Positions 8,934 through 41,621 of a stretch of DNA of 64,000 nucleotides are shown in pieces. Position 1 is the stretch's first letter; each line of letters begins with the position of its first letter. The DNA comes from a virus: IMG/VR virus record IMGVR_UViG_3300028569_000022, positions 27,441 through 91,440 of that record. The stretch is one strand, 5' to 3'. The notes beneath the pieces are model-generated. The model ran no database searches. It was not told the origin of the DNA and saw only the letters and a list, made by a program, of their open reading frames with translations. The translations under genes were made by a program, and so were the position numbers.

Positions 8934-9470
8934 ATGAAGAATTTTGATACATTATTCGAAAAAGAGTTAGAGCGCTTTCAGCTAGGAGGAATAATTGTAG
9001 GGGATCGCATCCGCTTTACAAAAGATTGCCTCAAATTAGATTACATTAAAAGCAGAGCAGCTTCATATCAAGATATTATCAAAGCTTGCTCTGAACCCAC
9101 ATTTGATCTTAACTTGCGAGTTGGTGCAGTAAAAAGCGTATATCCAACAACTTCACACAATTACACCGGAGGAGTAACTGATGCTCCTGACGGTATCTTT
9201 TTGGACATTTATATCGAATATGCTCCAGGATTATATAGAAATCCAATGACGGTGCCAATCGACGCAGTAGAAGTCATTGATGATGGAAACAATAGAGGAC
9301 CAGTGCCAGATAGTCTCGTAAGAAAAAACAGAGTGCACGGACCTGAGGAAATAAAAACCAAACAATCAGACTTTGCTAATATTAATTTGCCTACAAAAAA
9401 CACCACTCTCCCAAATGCAAATAAGTGGGATGACGGAAAACCAGGCGGAGGAAATTTTTTAAAGGTTTAA
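8934..9470 (+). CDS. Conserved phage hypothetical protein
   Basis: 178 residues. Residues about 18-110 suggest a small beta-barrel with an SH3/KOW flavour: GGIIVGDRIRFTKDCL, then LRVGAVKSVYPTTSH and a C-terminal strand pair (GIFLDIYIEYAPGLYRNPMTV, PIDAVEVIDD). The last 60 residues are polar and low complexity, ending KWDDGKPGGGNFLKV. No catalytic signature. It heads the plus-strand run leading to the ribonucleotide reductase genes and is divergent from the fibre block. I recall similar proteins in aquatic T4-like phages but cannot name a family. Confidence 0.6.
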   Translation: MKNFDTLFEKELERFQLGGIIVGDRIRFTKDCLKLDYIKSRAASYQDIIKACSEPTFDLNLRVGAVKSVYPTTSHNYTGGVTDAPDGIFLDIYIEYAPGLYRNPMTVPIDAVEVIDDGNNRGPVPDSLVRKNRVHGPEEIKTKQSDFANINLPTKNTTLPNANKWDDGKPGGGNFLKV

Positions 9471-9507
9471 GTTTCCTAAAACCATACTACACTAGTATGC
9501 ATGACCT

Positions 9508-9708
9508 ATGTTCAAAAATAAAATGCAAATAATCGTATATAAAATGGCTGTGGTAATATTCTATTGTATAGGGGATATTGCTTCAAAAATTAATTCTGAG
9601 TTTGCATATGAGATTTATCAGAAGTCTATGAAAGCATCTGTTAAATATGACGAGAAAATTGGTTGGTGGTTTTGGAAAGAACCTTTAAATACAAATACGA
9701 CTTTATGA
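9508..9708 (+). CDS. Small hypothetical protein upstream of nrdB
   Basis: 66 residues (MFKNKMQIIVYKMAVVIFYC...). One hydrophobic N-terminal segment is followed by a polar C-terminal half with KYDEKIGWWFWKEP. The stop TGA overlaps the nrdB ATG in an ATGA arrangement, a classic coupled junction that supports its being translated. Start uncertain among three Met codons in the first 13 residues (9508, 9523, 9544). No family recognised. Confidence 0.55.
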   Translation: MFKNKMQIIVYKMAVVIFYCIGDIASKINSEFAYEIYQKSMKASVKYDEKIGWWFWKEPLNTNTTL

Positions 9709-10697
9709 AAAATCAAACAAGATTAAAAATATTCGATGAACAAGTTTCGCGGAAGCCGAACTTATATCCGTGGACAGAACAGTTTATTGAAGCAATACAT
9801 GCTGGATTTTGGACAGATAAAGAATTCAACTTTAAGTCTGACGTGCAAAATTTTAAAGTTAGTTTGACTGAACAAGAAAAAGAAATTGTTATAAGAACGC
9901 TTTCTGCAATAGGACAAATTGAAGTTGCGGTAAAAAGCTTTTGGGCAAATCTTGGAACTAATCTTCCTCATCCATCTTTATCTGACCTTGGATATGTGAT
10001 GGCAAATACTGAAGTAATTCACAACAATGCGTACGAGCGCTTATTAACTGTTCTTGGTCTTGAAGATATATTCGAAGAAAACCTCAAGCTAGAGTGGATT
10101 CAAGGTCGTGTAAAATATCTTAAAAAATATACTCACAAATTTTACAAAGACTCAAAGAAGCAGTACTTGTATGCCTTAATCCTATTTACTTTATTTGTAG
10201 AGAATGTGTCGTTGTTTAGTCAATTCTACGTAGTCAATTGGTTCGCTCGCTTTAAAAACGTTCTCAAAGATACTGACCAGCAAGTCAAGTATACTCGTAA
10301 CGAAGAAAATTTACATGCGTTGATTGGGATGAAAATAGTCAATACAATTCGAGAAGAATATCCAGAATTGTTTGACGAAGAGCTTGAGGAAAAGATCCGG
10401 CAAGAAGCGCAAGAGGCATACAAAGCTGAGGCAAAAATTGTAGATTGGATGGTTAATGGTGTTCAACAGGAAGGACTTACTGCTGAAATTCTTAAAGAAT
10501 TTATTAAAAATCGTATTAATGAATCATTGGCTCAAATTGGATTTAAATCAGCATTTGAAGTTGACAAAGATGTATTACGGTCGACAATGTGGTTCGATGA
10601 AGAATTGCTTGGTAACAACATGTCTGACTTTTTCCACAGCCGGCCTGTAGATTACTCCAAATCAAACCAATCATTTTCTGAAGACGATTTATTTTAA
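9705..10697 (+). CDS. nrdB: Class I ribonucleotide reductase beta subunit
   Basis: 330 residues from the ATG at 9705, which overlaps the upstream stop by 4 nt; an in-frame ATG at 9663 would lengthen it but lies inside the upstream gene. It supplies the radical for ribonucleotide reduction with NrdA. By alignment to E. coli NrdB in memory, ligands are E103 and H106 (TEVIHNNAY), E166 (FVENVS), E201 and H204 (EENLH), with the radical tyrosine at Y110. The first-helix ligand appears to be E73 (IGQIEVAVKSFW) where E. coli has Asp84, resembling a Bacteroidetes-like NrdB sequence pattern. The C-terminus (SFSEDDLF) is the usual acidic tail that docks on NrdA. Four bases separate it from nrdA. Confidence 0.93.
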   Translation: MKNQTRLKIFDEQVSRKPNLYPWTEQFIEAIHAGFWTDKEFNFKSDVQNFKVSLTEQEKEIVIRTLSAIGQIEVAVKSFWANLGTNLPHPSLSDLGYVMANTEVIHNNAYERLLTVLGLEDIFEENLKLEWIQGRVKYLKKYTHKFYKDSKKQYLYALILFTLFVENVSLFSQFYVVNWFARFKNVLKDTDQQVKYTRNEENLHALIGMKIVNTIREEYPELFDEELEEKIRQEAQEAYKAEAKIVDWMVNGVQQEGLTAEILKEFIKNRINESLAQIGFKSAFEVDKDVLRSTMWFDEELLGNNMSDFFHSRPVDYSKSNQSFSEDDLF

Positions 10698-10700
10698 AAT

Positions 10701-11768
10701 ATGACAAACAAATATGAATGGCTTAACAAAGACTCGCGAAAATTTCTCGAAAGAGGATATTTGTTAGAAGGAGAAACTGCTGAGCAACGAATTAGAGATA
10801 TTGCAAATGCTGCAGAAAAATATCTTGATATTAAAGGCTTTGCTGATAAATTCGAGGGGTTCATGGAGAAAGGATTTTTTTCATTATCAAGCCCAATATG
10901 GTCAAATTTTGGACGGACTAGAGGCTTGCCTATAAGTTGTTTTGGCTCCTATATTCCTGATACGATGGAGGGAATCATGGAAAAAGTATCAGAAACTGCT
11001 ATCATGACAAAACACGGAGGCGGCACATCTGCTTATTTTGGAGATGTACGTGGAAGAGGATCAGCAATTTCATGTGGAGGAGAATCTACGGGTTCCGTTC
11101 ATTTTATGGAGCTGTATAACAAACTAATGAATGTTGTCTCTCAAGGAAATGTTCGCAGAGGTTCGTTTGCTGCATATCTTCCAATAGACCACAAAGACAT
11201 TGAGGAATTTTTACAAATTCGTTCAGAGGGACATGATATTCAAGAGTTATCATTTGCGGTGACTGTTTCTGATGAATGGATGAAAGATATGGTTGCTGGT
11301 GACAAAGACAAGCGAAGAATTTGGTCTAAAGTCATTCAAAAACGCTTCGAAACTGGCTATCCTTATATTATGTTTTCGGATACAGTTAACAACAATGCTC
11401 CTCAAGTGTATAAAGATAAAGGATTGAAGATTAATAACTCAAATCTTTGTGTAACAGGAGATACTTTAATCACCATTCTTATTAATAATTCTGAGAAACG
11501 TCAGATACAAATCAAGGACTTGATGTTCTATATGAAGAAGTATGAGGACGTCAAAGTAAAAGGATGCGACACTACCGAAAACAAAGTAGAATTTGAAAAA
11601 ATAGAAGTGTTTGCTCAGACTGGAGAATCTACTGAATTATATGAAATTGAAGACGAGCACGGAAACGTAATTAGATGCACACCAGACCACCAACTATACA
11701 CAAAGAACCGTGGTTATGTAATGGCAAAGGATCTCAAAGAAGACGACATCTTACAAAGCGAAAAATAA
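10701..11768 (+). CDS. nrdA: Ribonucleotide reductase alpha subunit, N-terminal half fused to split-intein N fragment
   Basis: 355 residues. Residues 1-249 are the NrdA N-extein. It lacks an N-terminal ATP-cone, so overall-activity control by dATP is probably absent. C80 (GLPISCFGSYI) corresponds to redox Cys225 of E. coli. Conserved blocks include TKHGGGTSAYFGDVRGRGS and QGNVRRGSFAAYLP. The extein ends NNSNL, giving catalytic Asn (E. coli N437) at N248. Residues 250-355 are intein sequence: block A starts CVTGDTLITI, block B is CTPDHQLYTKNRG, and the reading frame ends KEDDILQSEK-stop. The protein is therefore not a simple truncation; it is completed in trans by the protein at 12692. Spliced length would be 249+300 = 549 residues. 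Confidence 0.92.
   Translation: MTNKYEWLNKDSRKFLERGYLLEGETAEQRIRDIANAAEKYLDIKGFADKFEGFMEKGFFSLSSPIWSNFGRTRGLPISCFGSYIPDTMEGIMEKVSETAIMTKHGGGTSAYFGDVRGRGSAISCGGESTGSVHFMELYNKLMNVVSQGNVRRGSFAAYLPIDHKDIEEFLQIRSEGHDIQELSFAVTVSDEWMKDMVAGDKDKRRIWSKVIQKRFETGYPYIMFSDTVNNNAPQVYKDKGLKINNSNLCVTGDTLITILINNSEKRQIQIKDLMFYMKKYEDVKVKGCDTTENKVEFEKIEVFAQTGESTELYEIEDEHGNVIRCTPDHQLYTKNRGYVMAKDLKEDDILQSEK
11448..11765 (+). other. Split intein N-terminal fragment (IntN)
   Basis: Codes 106 residues, beginning at Cys1 directly after the extein SNL and ending at the gene's stop. Block A (CVTGDTLI) and block B with the conserved Thr-x-x-His (TPDH) are intact. No endonuclease domain is included. Together with the 33-residue IntC at 12692-12790 this is a mini-intein of about 139 residues. 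Confidence 0.9.
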
Positions 11769-11785
11769 CATAATATTAGATAAGT

Positions 11786-11820
11786 AATTACAGAGCATAG
11801 ACCATTTATGCTCTGTAATT
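11786..11820 (+). promoter_or_regulatory. Perfect hairpin abutting the HNH start codon
   Basis: Arms 11786-11799 (aattacagagcata) and 11807-11820 (tatgctctgtaatt) are perfectly complementary over 14 bp with a 7-nt loop. The right arm ends one base before the ATG at 11821, so the whole ribosome-binding region of the HNH gene lies in the stem. There is no U-tract, which argues against a simple terminator. Translational repression of the endonuclease in read-through nrdA message is inferred, by analogy with T4 homing-endonuclease genes. Confidence 0.65.
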
Positions 11821-12699
11821 ATGAACTACAAATTAATACATGATGAGCTAATAAATTATTGTAATGGAGTATCCCCGCAAATGAGACTAAAACATAGAAA
11901 TAAAAACGACGAAAGACTCAATAGTTCTTCTTTGTATGTTGAAATTCATCATATTCTTCCACGGTCTTTAGGAGGCACAGACGAGATTGCAAATTTAGTA
12001 GAAGTATTACCTGAAGAACATATATTTATTCACATGCTTCGATATAAATTATACAAAAAAAGAGAAGATGCATTAGCTGTACGTTTTTGTTTAAATGGAA
12101 TGAAATTTAATAAACAGAAAAAGCATGGGTTATCTTCTCTTATTTTAACAAAAAAACTGCGCATGGGGTATGCATGGATTAGAGCAAATGCTCAAACTGT
12201 TAGACAAACAGAGGGCTGGCATACTCCAGACGGAATTAAAAGAATTTCTGAAGCAAGAAAAGGCAAAATACCAGTAAAAGATATAGATACTAATCAGTTT
12301 ATTGGAGCTGTTTCTAACACTCATCCCAACGTAATTTCAGGTAAGTGGGTGCACCACACCAAAGGTAGACGTATATCCGAAGCTGAAAGACAAAAAAGAA
12401 AAAACATCGGAAAGGGTCAGAGCAATAATAATGCCTCAGGACTTTCGGAAGAGTACTTTATCCAAAAGGGTCTAGAAGCATTCAATGAGTTTGGAATAAT
12501 ATTAACATGGAAAGCAATGTTAATATTGTCTCAAAAAAGAGGCTTTCCGTGGATAAAAAGCACAAAAAGTAGGTTTAACGGTAAAAGCATTAGAGGTTAT
12601 TATTCAATTTTAGAAGAAAAGACAGGAACAAAATTTAATTCTTTTGCTGCTAGATCTTTATCAAAAACCAAGTTAAAATTAAAAGAAATTTATGATTAA
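11821..12699 (+). CDS. Free-standing HNH homing endonuclease between split-intein halves
   Basis: 292 residues. The HNH core is at residues 40-71: EIHHILPRSLGG (H43/H44), NLVEVLPEEH (N58, H67) and H71, the pattern of phage HNH endonucleases. The C-terminal two thirds are basic, with segments such as KRISEARKGKIPVKDIDTNQ and KGRRISEAERQKRKNIGKGQ that resemble NUMOD-type DNA-binding modules. It is expected to cut intein-less nrdA alleles and spread the whole insertion. It is placed exactly between the IntN and IntC coding halves and its stop overlaps the next gene's start by 8 nt. It has its own start and stop and is not fused to the intein. A hairpin covers its start region. Confidence 0.88.
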   Translation: MNYKLIHDELINYCNGVSPQMRLKHRNKNDERLNSSSLYVEIHHILPRSLGGTDEIANLVEVLPEEHIFIHMLRYKLYKKREDALAVRFCLNGMKFNKQKKHGLSSLILTKKLRMGYAWIRANAQTVRQTEGWHTPDGIKRISEARKGKIPVKDIDTNQFIGAVSNTHPNVISGKWVHHTKGRRISEAERQKRKNIGKGQSNNNASGLSEEYFIQKGLEAFNEFGIILTWKAMLILSQKRGFPWIKSTKSRFNGKSIRGYYSILEEKTGTKFNSFAARSLSKTKLKLKEIYD

Positions 12700-12790
12700 A
12701 ATACGCAAAATTACAAAAACTGAACCTGTATATGACATTACAGTAAAAAAAATTAAGAATTTTTTTGCAAATAAAATATTGGTCCACAAC
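12692..12790 (+). other. Split intein C-terminal fragment (IntC)
   Basis: Codes the first 33 residues of the next protein. Block F reads VYDITVKKIKNFFANKILVHN with the conserved Asp, and block G ends with His-Asn directly before the extein Cys+1. All residues for Asn cyclisation are present, so trans-splicing should be functional (inference). Confidence 0.9.
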
Positions 12791-13693
12791 TGTTCTGAAA
12801 TTTGTCTTTCTAATTCTCAGGATGAGTCGTTTGTTTGCGACCTTTCCTCTTTAAATTTAGAGAAATGGGATGAAATAAAAGACACTGATGCTGTAGAAAC
12901 TCTAGTATATTTTTTGGATGCTGTAATGACCGAATTTATTAATAAAACAGAAGGCATGCAGTTTATGGAGGCTCCTAGGAAATTTGCTGTCAACCAACGA
13001 GCCCTTGGAGTGGGTGTTCTTGGCTGGCATTCGCTGCTCCAATCAAAGATGATTGCGTTTGAGTCATTTGATGCAAAGATGCTCAATGTCAATATTTGGA
13101 AGACTATTAGAGAGCGTGCAGATAAAGCTACCGAAGAGTTGGCTTCGCTTTTTGGAGAGCCAGAATTGCTTAAGGGGTATAAAAGAAGGAACTCAACTAC
13201 TCTTGCTGTGGCTCCCACTACATCTTCCAGTTTTATCTTAGGACAAGTATCTCAATCGATAGAGCCAATGAATAGTAATTTTTATTCTAAAGACTTAGCT
13301 AAAGGACGCTTTAGTCACAAAAATCCTCACCTCAAAGAGTTGCTCAAAACTAAAGACAACAATACAGACGAAGTGTGGAAGTCGATTCTTTCAAACGGAG
13401 GATCCGTTCAACATTTAGATTTTCTTTCTGAAGTTGAAAAGGATGTATTTAAAACGTTTGAAGAAATTTCACAAAAAGAAATTGTTATTCAAGCAGCTCA
13501 ACGCCAAAAATACATTGATCAATCACAAAGTTTAAACTTGATGATTCCTCACAACGCGAAACCGAAAGAAGTTAATGAACTTCTCATATTTGGATGGGAA
13601 CAAGGAATTAAAACGTTTTACTACCAAAGATCATCAAATCCTGCACAAAAACTTGCTAGATCCATTATGACTTGTAAATCATGTGAGAGTTAA
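12692..13693 (+). CDS. nrdA: Split-intein C fragment fused to ribonucleotide reductase alpha subunit C-terminal half
   Basis: 333 residues: 33 of IntC then 300 of NrdA. The extein begins C34-S-E36-I, matching E. coli C439-x-E441, the thiyl-radical cysteine and catalytic Glu. C49 (SFVCDLSSLNL) matches redox Cys462. APTTSSSFILGQVSQSIEP is the conserved substrate-site loop, KTFYYQ contains the radical-transfer Tyr pair (E. coli Y730/Y731), and the tail MTCKSCES holds the CxxC that regenerates the active-site disulfide. Every catalytic element is present once the two halves are joined. Without splicing the catalytic Cys would sit on the wrong polypeptide, so activity depends on the intein. It overlaps the HNH stop by 8 nt and the next gene by 1 nt. 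Confidence 0.92.
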   Translation: MIKIRKITKTEPVYDITVKKIKNFFANKILVHNCSEICLSNSQDESFVCDLSSLNLEKWDEIKDTDAVETLVYFLDAVMTEFINKTEGMQFMEAPRKFAVNQRALGVGVLGWHSLLQSKMIAFESFDAKMLNVNIWKTIRERADKATEELASLFGEPELLKGYKRRNSTTLAVAPTTSSSFILGQVSQSIEPMNSNFYSKDLAKGRFSHKNPHLKELLKTKDNNTDEVWKSILSNGGSVQHLDFLSEVEKDVFKTFEEISQKEIVIQAAQRQKYIDQSQSLNLMIPHNAKPKEVNELLIFGWEQGIKTFYYQRSSNPAQKLARSIMTCKSCES

Positions 13694-14145
13694 TGCAATC
13701 AACAAGCCATAGAATTTTTAATACTGTTCTTGCTGGAGATTTATTAACAATATTTTACACCAAATTTCCGTTATTGACTTCAGTTGTTGCTTGTGGAATG
13801 GTGTTGTTCAGTAGTTTTCCTGACAAAATCGAGAAGATAGGATTAAAACACAGAGGAATTAGTCATTCACTAATTCTGTATTTAATTCTCGGTTGGATTT
13901 GTTTACAATTACCTACATTAATCGAAGCTCAACTCATTTGGATTTCGTATATAGGTTGCGGGTTTGTTTGTGGTTGTTTAGGTCATATTCTCGCTGATAT
14001 GTTTAGTAAGAACGGCATTGTTGTTCTTACTAAGAAAATAAGATTCAACCTGTATAGCACAGGAAATTTATCTGAACAAATTTTCTTGTTCAGCTTTGTT
14101 TTATTAAATTGTTTGTTGATATATTGGTTCTTGTTTACTAAATAA
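13693..14145 (+). CDS. YdjM-like membrane-bound metal-dependent hydrolase family protein
   Basis: 150 residues with four predicted membrane segments. The signature residues of the YdjM/DUF457 (PF04307-type) family are visible: THRIFN near the N-terminus, SFPDKIEKIGLKHRGISHS (Asp, and H53/H58) and CLGHILADMFSKNGI (His, Asp). In bacteria the family is annotated as an inner-membrane metal-dependent hydrolase, in some cases SOS-regulated; the substrate is not known. Its ATG shares one base with the nrdA stop (TAATG), so it is translationally coupled to nrdA. Why it sits behind nrdA is unknown. Confidence 0.75.
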   Translation: MQSTSHRIFNTVLAGDLLTIFYTKFPLLTSVVACGMVLFSSFPDKIEKIGLKHRGISHSLILYLILGWICLQLPTLIEAQLIWISYIGCGFVCGCLGHILADMFSKNGIVVLTKKIRFNLYSTGNLSEQIFLFSFVLLNCLLIYWFLFTK

Positions 14146-14196
14146 TCTTTATACACACTTTCCAATGCAGAGGAAATAGAAAGGAGATACACACAC

Positions 14197-14433
14197 ATGT
14201 CACATAATAACAAAAACGCTTACGAAATCCGTTTGGAAGTTCTTCAAATGGCTCACGGGGATATGAATATGAAGTTTATTGAAAAGCTTAATGTTCACAG
14301 AACACAAGATATAAATGGGTTTTTACAAAATCCATCAGAAGAAGTAATTGAAAGCTTGTTTCCAAAACCAGCTGATACTATTATCAGAGCTGAAGAACTC
14401 TATAAATTTGTTGAAGGAACAAAAGGCCTTTAA
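14197..14433 (+). CDS. Small conserved phage protein with strong Shine-Dalgarno
   Basis: 78 residues, all helical and charged (NAYEIRLEVLQMAHGDMNMKFIEKLNVHRT; C-terminus IIRAEELYKFVEGTKGL). It has one of the few good Shine-Dalgarno sequences in the window, AAGGAG at 14181-14186, ten bases before the ATG. A strong terminator follows 18 nt after the stop. Similar short proteins starting NKNAYEIRxEVL occur in cyanophage-type T4-like genomes, as far as I recall. Function unknown. Confidence 0.7.
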   Translation: MSHNNKNAYEIRLEVLQMAHGDMNMKFIEKLNVHRTQDINGFLQNPSEEVIESLFPKPADTIIRAEELYKFVEGTKGL

Positions 14434-14450
14434 TTTTTGAGTCGAACCCG

Positions 14451-14506
14451 AAACCCCTCTAGGCTACCAACCTGGAGGGGTTTTATTTTTTTTTTTTTTT
14501 TTTTTT
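14451..14506 (+). terminator. Rho-independent terminator with long T tract
   Basis: Arms 14451-14463 and 14471-14483 (aaacccctctagg / cctggaggggttt, one G-U pair) close a 7-nt loop, followed by TTTT-A-T21. It ends the nrdB-to-small-protein transcription unit. Confidence 0.9.
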
Positions 14507-14537
14507 AAATTTTTTTAAAATCTTTGATAAATAAAAA

Positions 14538-14564
14538 TGTCTGGTGCTCGAAAGAGGTCAGACA
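14538..14564 (+). promoter_or_regulatory. Small hairpin in the hsp20 leader
   Basis: Arms tgtctg (14538-14543) and cagaca (14559-14564), extendable by two G-U pairs. A GATAAATAA box lies just upstream (14525-14533), so the hairpin would be near the 5' end of the hsp20 message. Leader hairpins can act as thermometers in small heat shock genes, but no sequestered Shine-Dalgarno is obvious here. Confidence 0.3.
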
Positions 14565-14588
14565 AAACATAACATAGATTAATAAATT

Positions 14589-15068
14589 ATGACACAACTA
14601 CAAACATACGTCCCTGGACATTATTCGTCCACTGAACGGGTCTTCCGCCATTTGCCCGCTCTGTTTAATGATAACTGGCTAGAAAACATGTTCGGAGAAG
14701 TCGACAAAGCGTTTGACGTCCCGAATGCAGTATATCCCTACAACGTCTTACAAGTAAGGAACGACAAGCAAGAAGTAACCCAATATGAAGTTGAGGTAGC
14801 ACTTGCAGGAGTCGGAAAAGAACATATTGATGTAAAAGTCCGTGAAGGAAAACTACACATTAATATTCTCAAAGAAAAAGAGGAACCGATTGATACTATT
14901 GCGTATCTAAAACGAGGCATTAGTCAAAGAAAAGGAAGTATGACTTTCAATCTTGACGACAAAGTGAACTCCAAAAAAATTAGTTCAACTTATAAAGACG
15001 GGCTACTCAAGGTAATCATTCCAGTTGTAAAACCGGAAACGATTGATATTGATATTAAAGTAGCATAA
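14589..15068 (+). CDS. hsp20: Hsp20 / alpha-crystallin small heat shock protein
   Basis: 159 residues. Residues 1-45 form a variable N-terminal arm. Residues about 48-155 are an alpha-crystallin domain: YEVEVALAGVGKEHIDVKVREGKLHI, then KRGISQRKGSMTFNLDDKV and the consensus end STYKDGLLKVIIPV (the A/YxxxGxLxxxxP motif). The C-terminal extension is short. It acts as an ATP-independent holdase; hsp20 genes are frequent in T4-like phages of aquatic bacteria, where they may aid capsid protein folding. It is a single-gene unit between two terminators, with a late-promoter-like box and AT-rich leader upstream. Confidence 0.93.
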   Translation: MTQLQTYVPGHYSSTERVFRHLPALFNDNWLENMFGEVDKAFDVPNAVYPYNVLQVRNDKQEVTQYEVEVALAGVGKEHIDVKVREGKLHINILKEKEEPIDTIAYLKRGISQRKGSMTFNLDDKVNSKKISSTYKDGLLKVIIPVVKPETIDIDIKVA

Positions 15069-33886: not shown

Positions 33887-36280
33887 TTAATTTTCTCTTC
33901 TTTCCTCTGGCTTATAATATACTATTCTGTTGTGTTCAATAGGACTAGCAAGAAGTACTGCTGGTCGCAAATTGCCTTTTCTGGTCTCTTGAAACATATG
34001 ACTCATCCAAGTTTGTTCATAAGGATGTCCCCACTTTGTGTCCAAAAACATCTTTCTGTTTCCTTCTTTACCTACAATCATAGGCCAATTGGCATAATAA
34101 ATTTCCCCATCAATATAAGCTAGCTCATCAACAACATCAATTTTATTGAAAATTGTTCGTGGGCAATTTAAATCGAGTCCTTGTACTGGTAATTTATCGT
34201 AGTGTGGCCACAATTCTGTTCTAACATGCTGAGGAACATTATACCATGAAACTTGCAAATGATTGTCCATATAAACCTCAGTGAAGGTCAGCTTTAAAAA
34301 GTCAAATTCATCCTTAAGCATTATCTTATGGATTTTGTCGAACAAATTAGGTACATATTTCCTAAATCCATTTCTGCAAAACCCTGTGTTTTCAGGGGAA
34401 AACATGCCCATGTCATCCTCAAGAAAAATATAGTAATCACTGTCGGTTTGATCGAAATGTTCTGCTGCTCTGAGTCTGCCTCTATTAATCCCTAAATTCT
34501 CTCCAGTAACAATATGTTCAAAACCATACTCTTTACATATCTGCTCGTTTCCTTTTATTGCCTCTTCGTTATTAGAGTTATCAATTAAAAATTTCTTTGT
34601 TTTATCTAAAAACCCAGGATGCTGTTTATATTTTTCAAGTGTATATCTTACTTGTTGAGGAAAATTAAACGTGAGCATATACAGCGACGTTTTTAATTTA
34701 GATGTGTCTAAGCTCTTACGTATAAGAGCAACTCTGTCGTTCGGTATAGACTCTAATGCAACCGCATTATTAATTAACGCTTGGACAAACTTGACAACTA
34801 AGCCGTTACCATCTAAAGCATATCGTCTATATTTCTCTGGCTCAACATATGACATAAGAGTGAAAACGCTCTCTTCAGTACCCATAAACCCTCCTCTAAG
34901 GGTCTTATCTAGCATTGAGTAATACAACCCATTAGCTTGGTTTATTATTTCTTTTCTTCCGCCAAACAATCCGCCTCGACATACATATTCGACTTTTTTC
35001 CCTGCATAACGATTCATTGCATTAAAATCAAATCCATGAATTTCTGTATTTGCTTCATACGGATAGCTTAAAAACAAAAATGTATCGAGATGTGAAATTA
35101 TGTTATCAAGAGCTCTGTGTTCTGAAAAATATGATTTGCCTACAGTATTCGTTATACCAGCGTCTATCCAAATAAAATATTCAGTATTAAACGGATTCCA
35201 AATCGTGACATCGTTGAGTAAAAACATCTTTGATTGAACAATCGGATTGTACCATTCTAAAGATGCTTGAGGACTATTCGATAGCCATCCTCCTTCTCCT
35301 GTTTGATTGTACCATAACGGATTAGTTCTAATCTCTTGAGTCTTATTCCAAAACGGAGCATACATATTCCGTATATCTTCTAGCTCATAAATTTTAACGG
35401 AAGTATTTTCTCTCGAACGTTTTTCCCAAACTAAGTGTTCATATTCTTTAGGAATATAAATAAACATGTTGGCAGGTGTGTCTAGTAAATTTTTAAAATG
35501 TTCTATGTAATGAGAAAAATCTCTTCCTTGACGATTTATATTCCACAGACCTGTAACGATCGTTAGATTTTTATTTTGTATGTTGTTTATTGAAGTTGGC
35601 TCAGGCAACACACAACTTTCTCTAACTTTATTTAAATCCCAAAACGCGAGAACTTTTCTATTTCCGTTTTCGAACCCATCAACTCTTACATCTTCTTCTA
35701 AATAGGCATCAGGTTCAGGAAAATTGAATGGGGAAGCAATTAAATTGACTGGATAAAACCTGCCGTATTCAACACCTTCATTTTCTCTGTGAACCTCTCC
35801 AGATTTGCAAGACGTCCACGTGTGATCATCTATCTTTTTAGCCCATGTAGTGCTTAGTAGGTATTTACAATTTGAATTTAATATATTGTGAATAACCTGC
35901 TTGCTGTTTTCTAACGGAAGATGACCTAACACATCCCGTACTATTAATAAATCCGCATCAGGTATTTTATCTGTAATTAAATCGAACTCAACAAAATTAG
36001 TGGTTTCGTTTCCGTAATTTTGTGTATTAGCTTCCACTGCCTTTTTAACTATATCTCCGCCAACATAACTTTCAAATGAAGAAACTAGTTCTTTCATCCA
36101 ATTAAAATCTCCACACGGAATATCAACTACAGTTTTAATATTTTTTGCCGTAATAAGATCTTTTATTTTTTTTCTTAAAATTTTAGTTTCATCTAATGTG
36201 CTCCCAGGACCTGATCTACTCTCATTACTCCCGAAACCGTAATTTTCGTAGATGTTTGTAAAAACGTTTTTGTAATCCAT
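33887..36280 (-). CDS. Three-domain fusion: methyltransferase, HtrL/YibB-like and GT-A glycosyltransferase
   Basis: 797 residues. Residues 1-220: class I SAM methyltransferase with VVDIPCGDFNWM (motif I) and DLLIVRDVLGHLP. Residues about 230-510: HtrL/YibB-like domain (LTIVTGLWNINRQGRDFSHY; LNDVTIWNPFNTEYFIWIDA; FGGRKEIINQANGLYYSMLD). Residues about 525-790: GT2-like GT-A domain with DSDYYIFLEDDMGMFSPENT (the D-x-D-like EDDM) and a NLGINRGRLRAA nucleotide-binding loop. This suggests one polypeptide that both glycosylates and methylates a glycan. Last gene of the seven-gene minus-strand cluster; a gap of 6 nt separates it from the gene at 36287. Substrate unknown. Confidence 0.78.
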   Translation of the reverse strand: MDYKNVFTNIYENYGFGSNESRSGPGSTLDETKILRKKIKDLITAKNIKTVVDIPCGDFNWMKELVSSFESYVGGDIVKKAVEANTQNYGNETTNFVEFDLITDKIPDADLLIVRDVLGHLPLENSKQVIHNILNSNCKYLLSTTWAKKIDDHTWTSCKSGEVHRENEGVEYGRFYPVNLIASPFNFPEPDAYLEEDVRVDGFENGNRKVLAFWDLNKVRESCVLPEPTSINNIQNKNLTIVTGLWNINRQGRDFSHYIEHFKNLLDTPANMFIYIPKEYEHLVWEKRSRENTSVKIYELEDIRNMYAPFWNKTQEIRTNPLWYNQTGEGGWLSNSPQASLEWYNPIVQSKMFLLNDVTIWNPFNTEYFIWIDAGITNTVGKSYFSEHRALDNIISHLDTFLFLSYPYEANTEIHGFDFNAMNRYAGKKVEYVCRGGLFGGRKEIINQANGLYYSMLDKTLRGGFMGTEESVFTLMSYVEPEKYRRYALDGNGLVVKFVQALINNAVALESIPNDRVALIRKSLDTSKLKTSLYMLTFNFPQQVRYTLEKYKQHPGFLDKTKKFLIDNSNNEEAIKGNEQICKEYGFEHIVTGENLGINRGRLRAAEHFDQTDSDYYIFLEDDMGMFSPENTGFCRNGFRKYVPNLFDKIHKIMLKDEFDFLKLTFTEVYMDNHLQVSWYNVPQHVRTELWPHYDKLPVQGLDLNCPRTIFNKIDVVDELAYIDGEIYYANWPMIVGKEGNRKMFLDTKWGHPYEQTWMSHMFQETRKGNLRPAVLLASPIEHNRIVYYKPEERREN

Positions 36281-36286
36281 ATTGTA

Positions 36287-36916
36287 TTATTTTTTAATCT
36301 TGCATACCCATGCTGCCGGTGTAAATTGTTCTTGCATAAATGAATCTAAACAGTATTTGGCAACTGATTCTTGAATGTCTGAGTCTTGTATTTCATGCCA
36401 ATTCCAAAATTTCATGTAAACAGTTTTTTTAAAATATTCAGGAGTGGAAGCATAATCGTGTGCCATAATTATGTCTCCTTGTTTTATATATCTAGACAAT
36501 AAGTTAAATTCACCAATTTTCCAACCGCCGTCACACAACACTAGCGTTATTCCATCTTGCTGAATATATTCAATTGTTTCAGCTTTAACTTGACTATAAT
36601 CTTCATTAAATAAATTTTCTATTTTAACATGTATACCGTTAGTTTCTAACACTTTATACCCTGGTTGATAATGAATATCATTAGTTAATATAGTCGTAAT
36701 CAAATTCAACTCTTCGCATATTATCTTGAGAAATAAAGTAAAACCTCCCATGGACGTGCCTATTTCTAAAATTCTAGACGGCTTAATGGCTTTTATTAGA
36801 TTGTAAAATGATTCATATGTGTACGGGTTTTGCTGAGCTCCATGATTTAAATAGCACGATATGCTATCGTGTGATTCTAAGTTTGATCGCTTTGTTATAT
36901 TTTGTTCATTAAACAT
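36287..36916 (-). CDS. CmcI-like class I methyltransferase
   Basis: 209 residues. SAM-binding motif I is ILEIGTSMGGFTLFLK; the following acidic strand reads ITTILTNDIHYQPGY, and TLVLCDGGWKIGEFNLLSRY resembles the motif IV region of CmcI/cephalosporin-hydroxylase-type methyltransferases, as does QGDIIMAHDYAS. C-terminal FTPAAWVCKIKK. Small-molecule or sugar O-methylation is the expected activity. Six-nt spacing to both neighbours puts it firmly in the glycan operon. Confidence 0.7.
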   Translation of the reverse strand: MFNEQNITKRSNLESHDSISCYLNHGAQQNPYTYESFYNLIKAIKPSRILEIGTSMGGFTLFLKIICEELNLITTILTNDIHYQPGYKVLETNGIHVKIENLFNEDYSQVKAETIEYIQQDGITLVLCDGGWKIGEFNLLSRYIKQGDIIMAHDYASTPEYFKKTVYMKFWNWHEIQDSDIQESVAKYCLDSFMQEQFTPAAWVCKIKK

Positions 36917-36922
36917 ATTGTT

Positions 36923-37741
36923 TTATATTCTGTTTGCTTTTAGTTTCAAATAATCATTCAAAAATCGTTTAGTGTATCCGACCGCAAATGTGTTATTTGA
37001 ATTGTTGTCTATAGACATGTGTCCTCCCCAAAATGAAAATACATTAAAAATGTCAGCACTTATTATGTTGTAATGCTTGTTATGTAAATATCTAAATACG
37101 TATTGATCGTCAGTACAACCGTGTGGAAATCCGTTTTTGACGTCCCCAGACATGTAATCAAGGCACTCTTTCAATAAATTAAGAATATAATATTTCTCAC
37201 CTAAAAACACACCTGCATTTAATCCAAAAGGAAGAACGTTGCCGTATTTTTCTTTGTTTTTCTCTAAAAAAGATTGATATTGAGAATTGTAGAAATCACT
37301 TAAATAATTTCGATCCAGCGGTTCATACCCCGTGCCAGCATACTGATTTTCTATGTTAAATAAAATTTTGCAGTCATAAAATTCTAAATATTCAGACGGA
37401 TTAATAATATCTTTCAAAATTAATGTATCTAACCCGTCTAGATATAAAATATACTTCGGTAAATTGTCGTAATTATTTTTTATGTGAAAATATAGAGTTT
37501 CTACTTTGGAAATCCACTTGGTGTAGTGTTCAATTTTTAAAAAATTAACTTGATTGTTATTTTTTATCTTTATTGAATTTAAAGTACTTGCGTTTGCTGA
37601 GTGATTATCCGTTACGGTAAAAATTGCTAAATCTTCAGTCAAGTAAACGGACGTGTTTTGTAGTTCGTTTTTAAAATCAGTTAAAATTGACCCACAAAGA
37701 TATCTGCCATGCAGAACATTGAATTGGAAAAAATCTTTCAA
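36923..37741 (-). CDS. PLOD-like glycosyltransferase
   Basis: 272 residues. The sequence YILYLDGLDTLILKDI carries the D-x-x-D metal/nucleotide site of the procollagen-galactosyl/glucosyltransferase (PLOD GT) family. FGLNAGVFLGEKYYILNLLK is the next family hallmark (LN-[AS]-G-x-[FW]-[IL]-G) and HGCTDDQYVFRYLHNKHY is the third (DDQ). In animals this domain adds glucose to hydroxylysine-linked galactose; in phages the acceptor is unknown. No signal peptide. Member of the cluster, 27 nt after the next upstream gene. Confidence 0.72.
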   Translation of the reverse strand: MKDFFQFNVLHGRYLCGSILTDFKNELQNTSVYLTEDLAIFTVTDNHSANASTLNSIKIKNNNQVNFLKIEHYTKWISKVETLYFHIKNNYDNLPKYILYLDGLDTLILKDIINPSEYLEFYDCKILFNIENQYAGTGYEPLDRNYLSDFYNSQYQSFLEKNKEKYGNVLPFGLNAGVFLGEKYYILNLLKECLDYMSGDVKNGFPHGCTDDQYVFRYLHNKHYNIISADIFNVFSFWGGHMSIDNNSNNTFAVGYTKRFLNDYLKLKANRI

Positions 37742-37768
37742 ATTGTTAATTTAATTAAAACGTTTAAC

Positions 37769-38572
37769 TTAAGCTAACCAAAATCTTTCTACCTGTGGAT
37801 TGTGATTTACTATTAAAATTTTGGGGCTTAAATTTAAATCTGCTGGTTGGTTTATTCCTAATACATTATATACAGCACCTAATAAATATTCATCATTTAT
37901 TGCATACCATCCTCTGAAACAATTCATTTTATTTTGATCGTATAAATCGAATACTACATCGTTCCACATAGTAAACAGCTCCATCATTTTAGTTGAATCA
38001 CAAAAAACATATAAACGAGCTGCCTCATCAAATACTTTAATTTTAGAGCTTGTCGTTAAATTGTATTTTTCGTTCAGTAAATTTACGACTACTTTCATTT
38101 TAACATCCTCGGATTCAACATCCCAACGGGAAACCATATTATATAATATATTTTTATTGTTGAGATGTTCTTGTTTTAATACATCAAAGTTAATATGTGA
38201 GTCAGTTCCGAGCATGGCTATGTTATGCACGTTAAATGCAGCGGCTTGTAAAAGATGGAAACGAGTAGTTGAAAAAGGAAATTTATAATCTGTTTCTACA
38301 AATTTTCTTGCGTAATCATCAACGTCATAACTTTCTAAAAACGATTCATATTGCTCTAATTTTGGATATGTGTCATAAAAATCTTTAAGCTCGTGTACTA
38401 TAAGATTTTTGCGCTGCACATCTGCAAAGTATTTTTTATCATCTGTTAATATAAAATAATATAAATTGGGATGGTCAAAATACAAATTGGTTATTTTTTC
38501 TAAAGCTGTTTTTCTGTATGTCGGTCCGCAACACGTATAGCAAATAGCTAGTTTTTCGTTAAACTGTAACAT
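37769..38572 (-). CDS. Putative GT-A-type glycosyltransferase
   Basis: 267 residues. N-terminal strand-helix pattern EKLAICYTCCGPTYRKTALE, then a strand LYYFILTDDKKYFADVQRKN, followed by AAAFNVHNIAMLGTDSHINF where the D-x-H at LGTDSH takes the place of a D-x-D. FRGWYAINDEYLLGAVYNVL near the C-terminus resembles the acidic catalytic region of GT-A enzymes (N-D-E). The family is not identifiable by eye and the assignment leans on operon context between a PLOD-like GT and an FkbM methyltransferase. Confidence 0.5.
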   Translation of the reverse strand: MLQFNEKLAICYTCCGPTYRKTALEKITNLYFDHPNLYYFILTDDKKYFADVQRKNLIVHELKDFYDTYPKLEQYESFLESYDVDDYARKFVETDYKFPFSTTRFHLLQAAAFNVHNIAMLGTDSHINFDVLKQEHLNNKNILYNMVSRWDVESEDVKMKVVVNLLNEKYNLTTSSKIKVFDEAARLYVFCDSTKMMELFTMWNDVVFDLYDQNKMNCFRGWYAINDEYLLGAVYNVLGINQPADLNLSPKILIVNHNPQVERFWLA

Positions 38573-38598
38573 TATTTTAATTATTCGAAGTTTGGATT

Positions 38599-39111
38599 TT
38601 ATTTACAACAAAATAACACACCCATGAAATCTGGAGTTTGTTTGAAATTAGCTTTAACCTTTATCGTGAATCCCCATTCTTTTGTCTTTTTAATAAAGGA
38701 TTGCTTTAAATCTTCTGAATGAAATTCTATAGCTAATTCTGTTATATTGGTTAGATCTTCTGCAGTTAAATCTAAAAGTAACACTTCTCCGCCTTCTATA
38801 TCACACTTTAAAGCTGTTATTGAATGATCTTTTATTAAATTTCTAACTTGATCGGCTGAAGATAATATAACAGAATTAAAAGTAAATTTTGAGTTATTTT
38901 TAGTTTCGTTTATATAAAATGTGATATCGTTGCTGTAAGAATCTATTCCAACAACCTTATTAGCTGTTTTGCCAAAATATATAGGACTGCACTCTTCTAT
39001 GTTTGTTGTGTGCCATCTGCCGCATCCCAGATCTAAAACATTGTGACCACTGACGTTAAAGTGAATCCAATGGTCAGTCGAGTTCTCAGAATTTATAGTG
39101 TAATCAACCAT
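38599..39111 (-). CDS. FkbM-family methyltransferase
   Basis: 170 residues, compact. VLDLGCGRWHTTNIEE is motif I, KVVGIDSYSNDITFYI the acidic strand, and ITALKCDIEGGEVLLLDLTA the diagnostic FkbM 'DIEGGE' motif. C-terminal strand FTIKVKANFKQTPDFMGVLF. Shorter than most FkbM proteins (about 220-260), with a minimal N-terminus. Likely O-methylates a sugar. Sits 16 nt after the GlcNAc-transferase-family gene stop. Confidence 0.8.
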   Translation of the reverse strand: MVDYTINSENSTDHWIHFNVSGHNVLDLGCGRWHTTNIEECSPIYFGKTANKVVGIDSYSNDITFYINETKNNSKFTFNSVILSSADQVRNLIKDHSITALKCDIEGGEVLLLDLTAEDLTNITELAIEFHSEDLKQSFIKKTKEWGFTIKVKANFKQTPDFMGVLFCCK

Positions 39112-39127
39112 CTTTATAAACTATTAG

Positions 39128-40390
39128 TTAATGTGTTATTTCCAATTTATGTTCTACTCTTTCTGCCCACCCTTTATCTTTATGAACTGCCCAAGCAACC
39201 ATTTTTACTGGTTTTTTACCAGTGTAAGTAAAAAATTCTTCGAAATGGATAGGTTTGCCAGTGCTAATGAAATCATGCAATTCTTTTCCTTGTATGCTTC
39301 TAGATTTCACCCCAACTCCATCTTCGTCATCAAAGGCTATAAGAATTGATGAATAATTACTGCCTGGTAACTCATGTCTGTGAACAGTAACTAAATTATA
39401 GAATGAGTTAACCCACGGACTGTCGTTTGGAGTTGGTGGATATTGATTTGATAAGGCATATTCCTGTACTTTCTTCTCTTTAAAATTAACTCCAGCAAAC
39501 ACCTCATATTCAGCTAAAGTTCTAGATGTCCCTAATCCATAGTCACCAAAGACAATAGAATCATCTTGTTCAACTCCGAATAGCACACGGATTTTTTTGC
39601 GAGCAAATTCTTGTTTGTTATACCAATCAATTCCAAACTTTCCGTCATCATCCCATTTTAACATTCCGCTTCTTTCTTCTCTCATTGTAGAATGCCAAAT
39701 TACTAATCTGTGCGGATGGAAAATGTTATAGCCATGTGTAAATGACCTTACGGACAAATTAATCTCTTCGCCGCTAAAATATATGTCTGGATCATGCTTA
39801 ACGTCTCTGGCCCACTGGCTTCTAGCAAAAGAGAAATGACCCGACAAAAACCGAGCGTGAGCTGGTTCTGTCATAGTCTCCCATCCTGAAAGCAATGCTG
39901 GACGTATAAAAATAGTACCATGAGGATAAAAACAAGCGAATTGAGCCTGCCAAGGAACGTCTGCTCTACCTACCGGATCCTTAAATGGGTTATAATGAGG
40001 TAGATATCCAGCAATAATTGGTTTGTACCCTTGCTTCTCCATTTGAGAGTGCATTCCGATTAGAGTTGAATCCCAATTTTTGGTGAATCTGTGATGAGAG
40101 TCTAATTGTAAAACAAAATCCTCGTCTGTTAAAAGCTTTTCGTTTATTTGAGCTCTGGCCCACGGTAGACCCAAAGCCTCCTTATATGGAACATCCATTA
40201 TTTTAAATCTAGAATCTAATCTAAATTCGTCTATGTTATCAAATTGGTCAGCAGGATTATATTGCCTGCAAACCCCGAAATGTATTCGCTCTGGATACTC
40301 AGCGTGTGATAACGCATCTTTGATTGTAGGAATGAGCTCAGGGTCTCTATAGCTCGGTAAGTGTACTAAAATGGTTTCTGTATTACTCAT
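39128..40390 (-). CDS. PF11397-type GlcNAc-transferase family protein, copy 1
   Basis: 420 residues. N-terminal ILVHLPSYRDPELIPTIKDA, then LGLPWARAQINEKLLTDEDF and VLQLDSHHRFTKNWDSTLIG: the family's ASYRD start, W-A-R block and D-S-H metal-binding motif. GHFSFARSQWARDVKHDPDI and YFSGEEINLSVRSFTHGYNI complete the domain. Known eukaryotic members (GT60) add GlcNAc to hydroxyproline (Skp1) or to Thr in mucins. The C-terminal 100 residues (YSSILIAFDDEDGVGVKSRS) are an extra beta domain shared with copy 2. Its start overlaps copy 2 by 8 nt. Confidence 0.85.
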   Translation of the reverse strand: MSNTETILVHLPSYRDPELIPTIKDALSHAEYPERIHFGVCRQYNPADQFDNIDEFRLDSRFKIMDVPYKEALGLPWARAQINEKLLTDEDFVLQLDSHHRFTKNWDSTLIGMHSQMEKQGYKPIIAGYLPHYNPFKDPVGRADVPWQAQFACFYPHGTIFIRPALLSGWETMTEPAHARFLSGHFSFARSQWARDVKHDPDIYFSGEEINLSVRSFTHGYNIFHPHRLVIWHSTMREERSGMLKWDDDGKFGIDWYNKQEFARKKIRVLFGVEQDDSIVFGDYGLGTSRTLAEYEVFAGVNFKEKKVQEYALSNQYPPTPNDSPWVNSFYNLVTVHRHELPGSNYSSILIAFDDEDGVGVKSRSIQGKELHDFISTGKPIHFEEFFTYTGKKPVKMVAWAVHKDKGWAERVEHKLEITH

Positions 40391-41621
40391 ATTTTATAAT
40401 TTGTTCAATCTTATCGCACCATCCTTTAGAAATACTGTGAGGCCAAAATCTTGACGAGTATGGTAACTTGTTGTCATCATAATCTACCCACACGTGGATA
40501 AATTTGTCGTTTGGATCTTTGTTTAATAAAGTTTTAATTTCTGGCTCTCCGACATCTCTTCTAAATAAATCCTCTCCTGCTGTATTCAGCATAGCTACCA
40601 CAAAAACATTATAATCAGTTTCTGTAAGAGATTCTTTAAAAATACTTACACAGGTTTTAACTTTATTTTTTAACCCTTTTTCATAATCTCCTTTTATTGG
40701 TGGTCTCTCATTATTTAAAGTTTCTTCGTGAATTTGACGTTTGCTGAAATTCAATCCAGCATATCTTTCATAATCTTGTAGTGTTCTTTCCTCACCAAAT
40801 CCAAACCCATTTAAATCTTCATTACTGTTTCCCATTCCAAACAAAGCCCTGAACCGAGCATAAGATTTTTTATCTTTATCAGACCATCCTGAATGATCTC
40901 CCCAATGTTTAGGTTTGCTCTCTCTGCCATAAAAATGCCAAGCAAGTATTTTATGAGGACTAAATAGATCGTATCCGTGAGTGAATGCTCGTACTGCAAG
41001 TGAGGTTTCTTCTCCGTGAAAATAAAAGTCTGGATCGTAAGGTACTTCTACAACAAACTTGCCTAATGTAAAAATGTAATGACCAGATATGAATCTTGAT
41101 GGAAAGGGTTTTTCCTGATTTTGCCAATCAGGTAATGCAGATGGTCTCAAGAAAGCTGGACCTTCCGGCAAGAAACGTTCTATTCCCATAATCCAAGGGT
41201 GAGTTATTCTATCTAACGGGTCTTTGTCAGGAAAGTAACATGGTAAATATGAAGAAAGAATAGGTTTTTTATATCCATCAACTTGCAAATCCTTAAGCAT
41301 ATTGATAGACTCTGTATCCCAATTTTTAATAAATCGGTGATGACTGTCTAATTGCAATGTAAACTCCTCGCCTTTGTAATGTTGTTGAATTTGACTCCTA
41401 GCCCAACAAGCGCCGTTACTTTGTTCAAAAGGAATGTCTAGTATGTTAAATCTGGAGTCGTTTTTATACTTGTCTATATTTTCGTCTAAGCCATGTTGCC
41501 ACGCGATGCAGAAGACTAAATTTTCCGGAAATTCAGCATTTGCAACACAATCATCAATAGTTGGGATTAACTCAGCATCTCTATAAGATGCTATTTGAAT
41601 GAAAATTTTTGATTTAATCAT
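40383..41621 (-). CDS. PF11397-type GlcNAc-transferase family protein, copy 2
   Basis: 412 residues, clearly paralogous to the 39128 protein. IFIQIASYRDAELIPTIDDC, ACWARSQIQQHYKGEEFTLQ, LDSHHRFIKNWDTESINMLK and FYFHGEETSLAVRAFTHGYD match it block by block. The C-terminal part (YNVFVVAMLNTAGEDLFRRD) is the same extra domain with a different loop. The two tandem copies differ enough to act on different acceptors or positions. First gene of the minus-strand glycan cluster; a small unknown gene lies 9 nt upstream. Confidence 0.87.
   Translation of the reverse strand: MIKSKIFIQIASYRDAELIPTIDDCVANAEFPENLVFCIAWQHGLDENIDKYKNDSRFNILDIPFEQSNGACWARSQIQQHYKGEEFTLQLDSHHRFIKNWDTESINMLKDLQVDGYKKPILSSYLPCYFPDKDPLDRITHPWIMGIERFLPEGPAFLRPSALPDWQNQEKPFPSRFISGHYIFTLGKFVVEVPYDPDFYFHGEETSLAVRAFTHGYDLFSPHKILAWHFYGRESKPKHWGDHSGWSDKDKKSYARFRALFGMGNSNEDLNGFGFGEERTLQDYERYAGLNFSKRQIHEETLNNERPPIKGDYEKGLKNKVKTCVSIFKESLTETDYNVFVVAMLNTAGEDLFRRDVGEPEIKTLLNKDPNDKFIHVWVDYDDNKLPYSSRFWPHSISKGWCDKIEQIIKYE

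What the first reader, a model, noticed from the sequence alone, without database searches (positions are those of the whole stretch)
10701..13693. Fractured nrdA: a split intein inserted directly before the catalytic cysteine, with a free-standing HNH gene between the halves
Seen: NrdA-N plus IntN (Cys1, block B TPDH) ends in a stop; then a complete HNH gene; then IntC (ending His-Asn) plus NrdA-C starting with Cys. Joining gives SNL-CSEI, the exact active-site motif of NrdA with Asn437, Cys439 and Glu441 equivalents, so the intein splits the enzyme at its thiyl-radical cysteine. Known: 'fractured genes' with split inteins and intervening endonuclease genes have been described from marine metagenomes. 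Inference: here the endonuclease is HNH-type and is expressed separately, giving a genetic element whose endonuclease and protein-splicing parts are independent genes within one essential locus.
Basis: partly seen in the sequence, partly recalled or inferred. Interest (0 to 1): 0.85.

Follow-up and report, generated by a model that had tools for sequence, protein, structure and literature searches.

The report
Phage enzyme gene split by mobile element
A bacterial virus carries its DNA-building-block enzyme as two separate genes that should be stitched together as proteins exactly at the catalytic cysteine, with a DNA-cutting gene parked between them; this is a real member of a known but little-studied kind of mobile element, and its relatives show the whole block moving between viruses as a unit.

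Summary
nrdA is two ORFs: NrdA-N + IntN (10701-11768) and IntC + NrdA-C (12692-13693), with a separate HNH gene (11821-12699) between them. Joining the exteins gives SNL|CSEI, 549 aa, with the catalytic cysteine as the +1 splicing nucleophile. 94 of 103 related IMG/VR loci have the uninterrupted motif. Eighteen other complete loci, including the isolate Yersinia phage TG1, have the same IntN / HNH / IntC order, so the stops are not sequencing errors. The HNH gene is PHROG 655, the family of the T4 mobE-position nuclease. It tracks the intein, not the enzyme (partial r 0.76 vs 0.06). In L117/L118 the whole block is 97% identical between flanks only 87% identical, the footprint of recent homing.

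Not in the finding: a strong hairpin lies at the HNH start codon. Relatives add a T4-type late promoter and, 20-21 nt upstream, a copy of the target codons (TGTnnnGAAAT), resembling the I-TevI operator. The window has the hairpin, no late promoter, and only a weak target copy.

The arrangement itself is known (fractured nrdA, Dassa 2009; HNH split intein in PolB of phage MIJ3). Verdict: new member of a known kind. Splicing, cutting and repression are inferred.

The parts
10701..11447 (+). NrdA N-extein (249 aa), ends ...SNL
   Evidence: ORF; Pfam PF02867 5.7e-40 for the ORF; split point
11448..11768 (+). IntN, N-half of split intein (106 aa, Cys1, TPDH) plus stop TAA
   Evidence: Pfam PF14890 positions 5-92; NrdJ-1 intein 8ubs best solved match for IntN+IntC, 1.3e-17; aligned in 19 loci
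11784..11822 (+). RNA hairpin (18 bp, 3-nt loop) ending inside the HNH start codon
   Evidence: -21.7 kcal/mol, z = -7.3 against dinucleotide shuffles; hairpin-like leader in 17 of 19 loci, control region median z -0.24
11809..11819 (+). degenerate homing-site-like sequence TGCTCTGTAAT (7/8 to TG[TC]NNNGA[AG]AT), possible operator relic
   Evidence: weak in the window itself (p 0.15), but 15 of 19 loci have 8/8 (shuffles mean 0.15, max 2)
11821..12699 (+). free-standing HNH homing endonuclease gene (292 aa, PHROG 655, MobE-like)
   Evidence: PHROG 655 4.9e-20; H43, H44, N58, H67, H71 invariant in 10 loci; dN/dS 0.06-0.19 where synonymous change is not saturated
12692..12790 (+). IntC, C-half of split intein (33 aa, VYDITV...VHN), own ATG overlapping the HNH stop by 8 nt
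   Evidence: Pfam PF14890 positions 124-155; alignment of 19 loci
12791..13693 (+). NrdA C-extein (300 aa), starts with the catalytic Cys (CSEI)
   Evidence: Pfam PF02867 6.1e-53; Cys aligned to human RRM1 C429 by counting in the alignment
9663..10697 (+). nrdB, upstream neighbouring gene (context)
   Evidence: Pfam PF00268 9e-48

Best explanation
A mobile 'fractured gene' element sits in nrdA. The locus yields three proteins: NrdA-N-IntN, the HNH nuclease and IntC-NrdA-C. The intein halves associate and trans-splice; the C-extein's first residue, the catalytic (thiyl-radical) cysteine, is also the +1 splicing nucleophile, so active NrdA should arise only by splicing. The nuclease cuts intein-less nrdA alleles around the Cys-X-Glu-Ile codons during co-infection, and repair copies the whole IntN-HNH-IntC block; the insertion itself splits the target and protects the carrier. 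Nuclease expression is held down by a hairpin at its start codon, and in relatives probably delayed to late infection. Shown by sequence: the anatomy, empty sites, common descent of IntN/IntC/HNH apart from the exteins, purifying selection on HNH, and recent block transfer in relatives. Inferred: splicing, cutting, the exact recognition sequence, and regulation.
For: Anatomy and motifs. Contiguous active-site motif in 94/103 related loci, 64 distinct regions. Nineteen complete loci with the same order, among them isolate TG1. IntN and HNH distances agree (Mantel r 0.79; 0.76 after removing extein distance), extein-HNH does not (0.06 after removing IntN). Extein data reject the clade that HNH supports, p-AU 1.8e-67. 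L117/L118: block 97.2% vs flanks 86.9% nt identity, p 4.6e-26, nearest flank differences 19 and 14 nt outside the junctions; dS 0.04-0.13 in the block vs 0.72-1.01 in exteins. Closest solved intein is NrdJ-1, a split intein shown to trans-splice fast (PMC7090010). Hairpins at the HNH start.
Against: No biochemical evidence for this locus. Block transfer is shown in relatives, not for the window itself. The window lacks the late promoter and has only a weak target copy. The HNH fold model is moderate (pTM 0.36) and its Foldseek hits are not significant (best E 0.28, although the top hits are HNH proteins). Intein_splicing on the C-half is just under the Pfam cut-off (35.4 vs 35.8).
Confidence: 0.9

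Rival explanations
1. Genes in pieces as in phage Aeh1: the two NrdA fragments assemble without splicing and the intein halves are inert tails.
For: Aeh1 nrdA, split by an HNH gene (mobE), works without splicing (PMC2988022).
Against: Cys1, T-x-x-H, the IntC Asp, His-Asn and +1 Cys/Ser are kept in all 19 loci, which inert tails would not need. The active site is divided by the break: Asn on one chain; Cys and Glu on the other.
Confidence: 0.06
2. Decaying or frameshifted pseudogene of a formerly continuous intein and enzyme.
For: Campylobacter phage nrdA genes with inteins were read as degenerating (PMC3653736). L112 in our set has a frame break in NrdA-N.
Against: dN/dS of 0.02-0.19 in unsaturated comparisons (one 36-codon IntC comparison 0.54, few changes); independent loci keep the same three-ORF order; an own start codon for IntC in every complete locus.
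Confidence: 0.02
3. Group I intron or RNA-level removal of the insert.
For: Introns are common in phage RNR genes (PMC3653736).
Against: No Rfam intron match in 9400-14600; the insert boundaries carry intein coding sequence.
Confidence: 0.01
4. A rival to the regulatory part only: the homing-site copy in the leader is a relic of how the nuclease gene first inserted, with no regulatory role.
For: The loci share descent; the window's own copy is degenerate; the copy does not follow each locus's own extein codons.
Against: Kept in 15 of 19 leaders although HNH proteins are as little as about 27% identical; fixed 20-21 nt spacing to TATAAATA; different serine codon families (TCT/TCA, AGT/AGC) are used.
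Confidence: 0.4

Closest known systems
Fractured genes with split inteins (Dassa et al. 2009; seven nrdA cases cited in PMC3653736)
   Same: Enzyme gene broken by a split intein with a free-standing endonuclease gene between the halves; nrdA among the hosts.
   Different: The paper is not in the library, so insertion site and nuclease family of its nrdA cases could not be compared. From memory, half of its loci have Vsr-like nucleases, and its NrdA-2 intein resembles this one.
PolB split intein with HNH gene, phage MIJ3 (PMC6892783)
   Same: Split intein with a separate HNH gene between the halves.
   Different: Host gene is DNA polymerase B, one genome, +1 Ser.
Aeh1 nrdA split by mobE (Friedrich 2007, described in PMC2988022)
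   Same: HNH gene of the Mob group inside nrdA; hairpin and late-promoter control of mobE.
   Different: No intein; fragments assemble without ligation.
I-TevI of the T4 td intron (PMC2988022)
   Same: Late promoter, start-site hairpin, and an operator resembling the homing site next to the promoter, as in the relatives of this locus.
   Different: GIY-YIG nuclease in a group I intron; there the operator is proven.
Continuous LAGLIDADG inteins at the same NrdA site (Staphylococcus phage V1SA22, Salicola phage SCTP-2, IMG/VR L044)
   Same: Same insertion point SNL|C.
   Different: One ORF, LAGLIDADG domain inside the intein.

Membership tests
Fractured gene (split intein + free-standing endonuclease) | Host enzyme gene in two ORFs, interrupted in an otherwise conserved region | tested here: met
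Fractured gene (split intein + free-standing endonuclease) | Complementary intein halves fused to the two host fragments | tested here: met
   PF14890 positions 5-92 and 124-155; alignment of 19 loci
Fractured gene (split intein + free-standing endonuclease) | Separate endonuclease gene between the halves | tested here: met
Fractured gene (split intein + free-standing endonuclease) | Trans-splicing yields the ligated enzyme | not testable with these tools
   needs co-expression
Class 1 intein | Cys1, block B T-x-x-H, terminal His-Asn, +1 Cys/Ser/Thr | tested here: met
MobE-like HNH homing endonuclease (PHROG 655) | Sequence family and HNH residues | tested here: met
   PHROG 655 for window and for the HNH gene between nrdA and nrdB of LF82-1
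MobE-like HNH homing endonuclease (PHROG 655) | Located between nrdA and nrdB as in T4 | tested here: not met
   here it lies inside nrdA, between intein halves
MobE-like HNH homing endonuclease (PHROG 655) | Cuts or nicks an nrd target | not testable with these tools
   needs protein
Aeh1-type genes in pieces | Split without any splicing element | tested here: not met
   intein halves present
I-TevI-type control of the nuclease gene | Hairpin burying the translation start | tested here: met
   window z -7.3
I-TevI-type control of the nuclease gene | Late promoter TATAAATA in the leader | tested here: not met
   absent in the window leader; present in 9 of 19 loci, 0 of 19 control regions
I-TevI-type control of the nuclease gene | Operator resembling the homing site | tested here: inconclusive
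   window 7/8, p 0.15; 15 of 19 loci 8/8

The most novel reading that the evidence does not exclude
In this family of fractured nrdA elements the HNH nuclease recognises TGT-NNN-GAAAT, the codons of the catalytic Cys and the Glu-Ile that follow. It also binds a copy of that sequence placed 20-21 nt upstream of its own late promoter, repressing itself as I-TevI does. Target codon mimicry, hairpin and late promoter together time a nuclease that lives inside a split intein.
Probability: 0.4. Interest if true: 0.65.

Novelty: new member of a known kind. Interest (0 to 1): 0.5.

Why it matters
It gives an aligned set of nineteen complete loci, one of them in a cultured isolate (TG1), in which the step from mobile intein to split intein can be studied. 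The L117/L118 pair shows the nuclease and both intein halves moving as one block although they are three genes. Because the splicing nucleophile is also the catalytic cysteine, the carrier virus should have active enzyme only if splicing is exact, which would explain retention. If the target copy in the leader is an operator, it gives a concrete guess at the recognition sequence of the nuclease, and makes it testable.

Tried and rejected
Group I intron: no Rfam hit. Sequencing-error stops: rejected by independent loci. A second nrdA copy in the same 91-kb record: none found, but the record may be partial. HNH fold by AlphaFold2/Foldseek: only non-significant hits, topped by HNH proteins. Late-promoter motif TATAAATA in the window at large: 11 against 7.0 expected, not informative. 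Scan of GTDB genomes: one further double-fractured locus in a Prevotella MAG contig (L205) and one short hit not followed up. dN/dS for window pairs is mostly saturated at synonymous sites and was used only where finite. Dassa 2009 could not be read.

Full report
Observation. The sequence shows three consecutive ORFs in three different frames. The first encodes the N-terminal 249 residues of a ribonucleotide reductase large subunit followed by 106 residues of an intein N-half. The second is a 292-residue HNH gene. The third starts 8 nt inside the end of the second and encodes 33 residues of an intein C-half followed by 300 residues of NrdA. Pfam places the two intein pieces on positions 5-92 and 124-155 of one model, and the enzyme pieces on the RNR barrel. 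The joined protein reads SNL|CSEI and matches solved NrdA chains over its full length (6dqw, 8e-205); its Cys aligns with the human RRM1 residue that I count as C429, the known radical cysteine.

Empty sites and occupied sites. In 94 of 103 NrdA loci fetched from IMG/VR the motif is contiguous, SNLCSEI in 77. At the same point some phages carry a continuous intein with a LAGLIDADG domain: Staphylococcus phage V1SA22, Salicola phage SCTP-2 and L044. A profile search then gave nineteen complete fractured loci including the window, one of them the cultured Yersinia phage TG1, whose record lists only two RNR genes and an HNH gene. A motif scan (below) added L240, L241, L255, L309 and L327. In L119, L120 and L255 the insertion lies one codon downstream, SNIC|S, so the intein can sit on either side of the catalytic Cys. 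In L191 and Klebsiella phage KP13-7 the gene between the halves is a GIY-YIG nuclease instead.

The block is one mobile unit. Across nineteen loci the distances of IntN and HNH agree (Mantel r 0.79, and 0.76 after removing extein distance), while HNH and exteins do not once IntN is accounted for (0.06). The window and L130 share 23% of extein residues but 48% of IntN, 73% of IntC and 53% of HNH. Trees say the same: the extein data reject a clade of window, L042, L112, L129 and L130 that HNH supports (p-AU 1.8e-67; the clade was chosen after seeing the distances). The clearest case is L117/L118: the whole IntN-HNH-IntC block is 97.2% identical, the enzyme flanks 86.9% (p 4.6e-26), with the nearest flank differences 19 and 14 nt outside the junctions. 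Synonymous divergence is 0.04-0.13 in the block against 0.72-1.01 in the flanks. This is what homing of a recent date should leave.

Control region. The 35-87 nt between IntN stop and HNH start fold into a hairpin ending at the start codon. Seventeen of nineteen loci have z below -2, median -4.6, against -0.24 for the region before IntC; the window has z -7.3. Nine of nineteen leaders contain TATAAATA, the T4-type late promoter, and none of the nineteen control regions does. Fifteen of nineteen contain TG[TC]NNNGA[AG]AT, which is the DNA of the C-extein start (Cys-X-Glu-Ile); shuffles give a mean of 0.15 and at most 2. This pattern was relaxed after looking at the leaders; the stricter form with Ser or Thr codons was in 11 of 19 (shuffles at most 1). 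In the loci where the strict copy and TATAAATA occur together, the copy starts 20-21 nt before TATAAATA. A scan of IMG/VR with this composite DNA pattern alone, without reference to protein, found 116 stretches, and about twenty of the loci examined place it between IntN and HNH of a fractured nrdA, several being repeat contigs of the same locus. The copy mostly has a serine codon even where the locus's own enzyme has Asn, Thr or Ile, so it follows the commonest target and not the host gene. The published design of I-TevI has the same parts: hairpin over the ribosome site, late promoter, and an operator similar to the homing site (PMC2988022). The window itself keeps the hairpin but lacks TATAAATA, and its copy is degenerate (7/8, p 0.15), so this layer is a statement about the family, not about the window.

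Placement. The arrangement is known: fractured genes, with seven nrdA cases, from marine metagenomes (Dassa 2009, cited in PMC3653736), and a split intein with an HNH gene in PolB of phage MIJ3 (PMC6892783). The nearest solved intein is NrdJ-1, from memory one of those early fractured genes. The HNH protein belongs to PHROG 655, as does the HNH gene between nrdA and nrdB of a T4-like phage, so the element combines a Mob-type nuclease with a split intein; in Aeh1 the same kind of nuclease split nrdA without an intein. I therefore call it a new member of a known kind, with an untested and possibly new regulatory feature in its relatives.

Limits. No splicing, cutting or binding has been measured here. 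The Dassa paper could not be read. Loci are related by descent, so counts are not independent trials. The contig is a 91-kb virus record, possibly partial, without host assignment.

Noticed in passing
L120:1459-5945: nrdA appears split into three ORFs by two split inteins: one at LPIS|C with an HNH gene on the opposite strand (1871-2830), one at SNIC|S with a + strand HNH gene. The close relative L119 lacks the first.
   Followed up: partly
L205:2124-4937: Contig binned as a Prevotella MAG carries a similar double fracture of nrdA with a minus-strand HNH gene; possibly a phage contig.
   Followed up: partly
L207 (OP617745 29849-36145): Klebsiella jumbo phage KP13-7 nrdA is in several pieces with split-intein halves, a GIY-YIG gene and HNH-like genes, annotated mostly as hypothetical proteins.
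   Followed up: partly
L208 and L209 (Campylobacter phages IBB_35 and CP20): nrdA genes described in the literature as degenerating have IntN and IntC halves at the NLC|C site in separate ORFs with unknown genes between; they may be working fractured genes.
   Followed up: partly
L105 (LR756511) and L093: nrdA with two continuous inteins, one at LPIS|C and one at SNL|C.
   Followed up: no
L110 (Staphylococcus phage Koomba-kaat_1): Intein at a different nrdA site (SQG|C) while the SNLCSEI site is empty, unlike its relative V1SA22.
   Followed up: no
L042:3391-5109: A 572-aa zinc-ribbon protein that looks like a Vsr-type nuclease directly upstream of the fractured nrdA.
   Followed up: no
window 9663-13693: NrdA is short, without an ATP cone, and closest to 6dqw/6dqx, which from memory are class Id RNRs; the nrdAB pair may be class Id.
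   Followed up: no
window 33887-41621: Cluster of minus-strand ORFs that look, by eye, like glycosyltransferases and methyltransferases.
   Followed up: no
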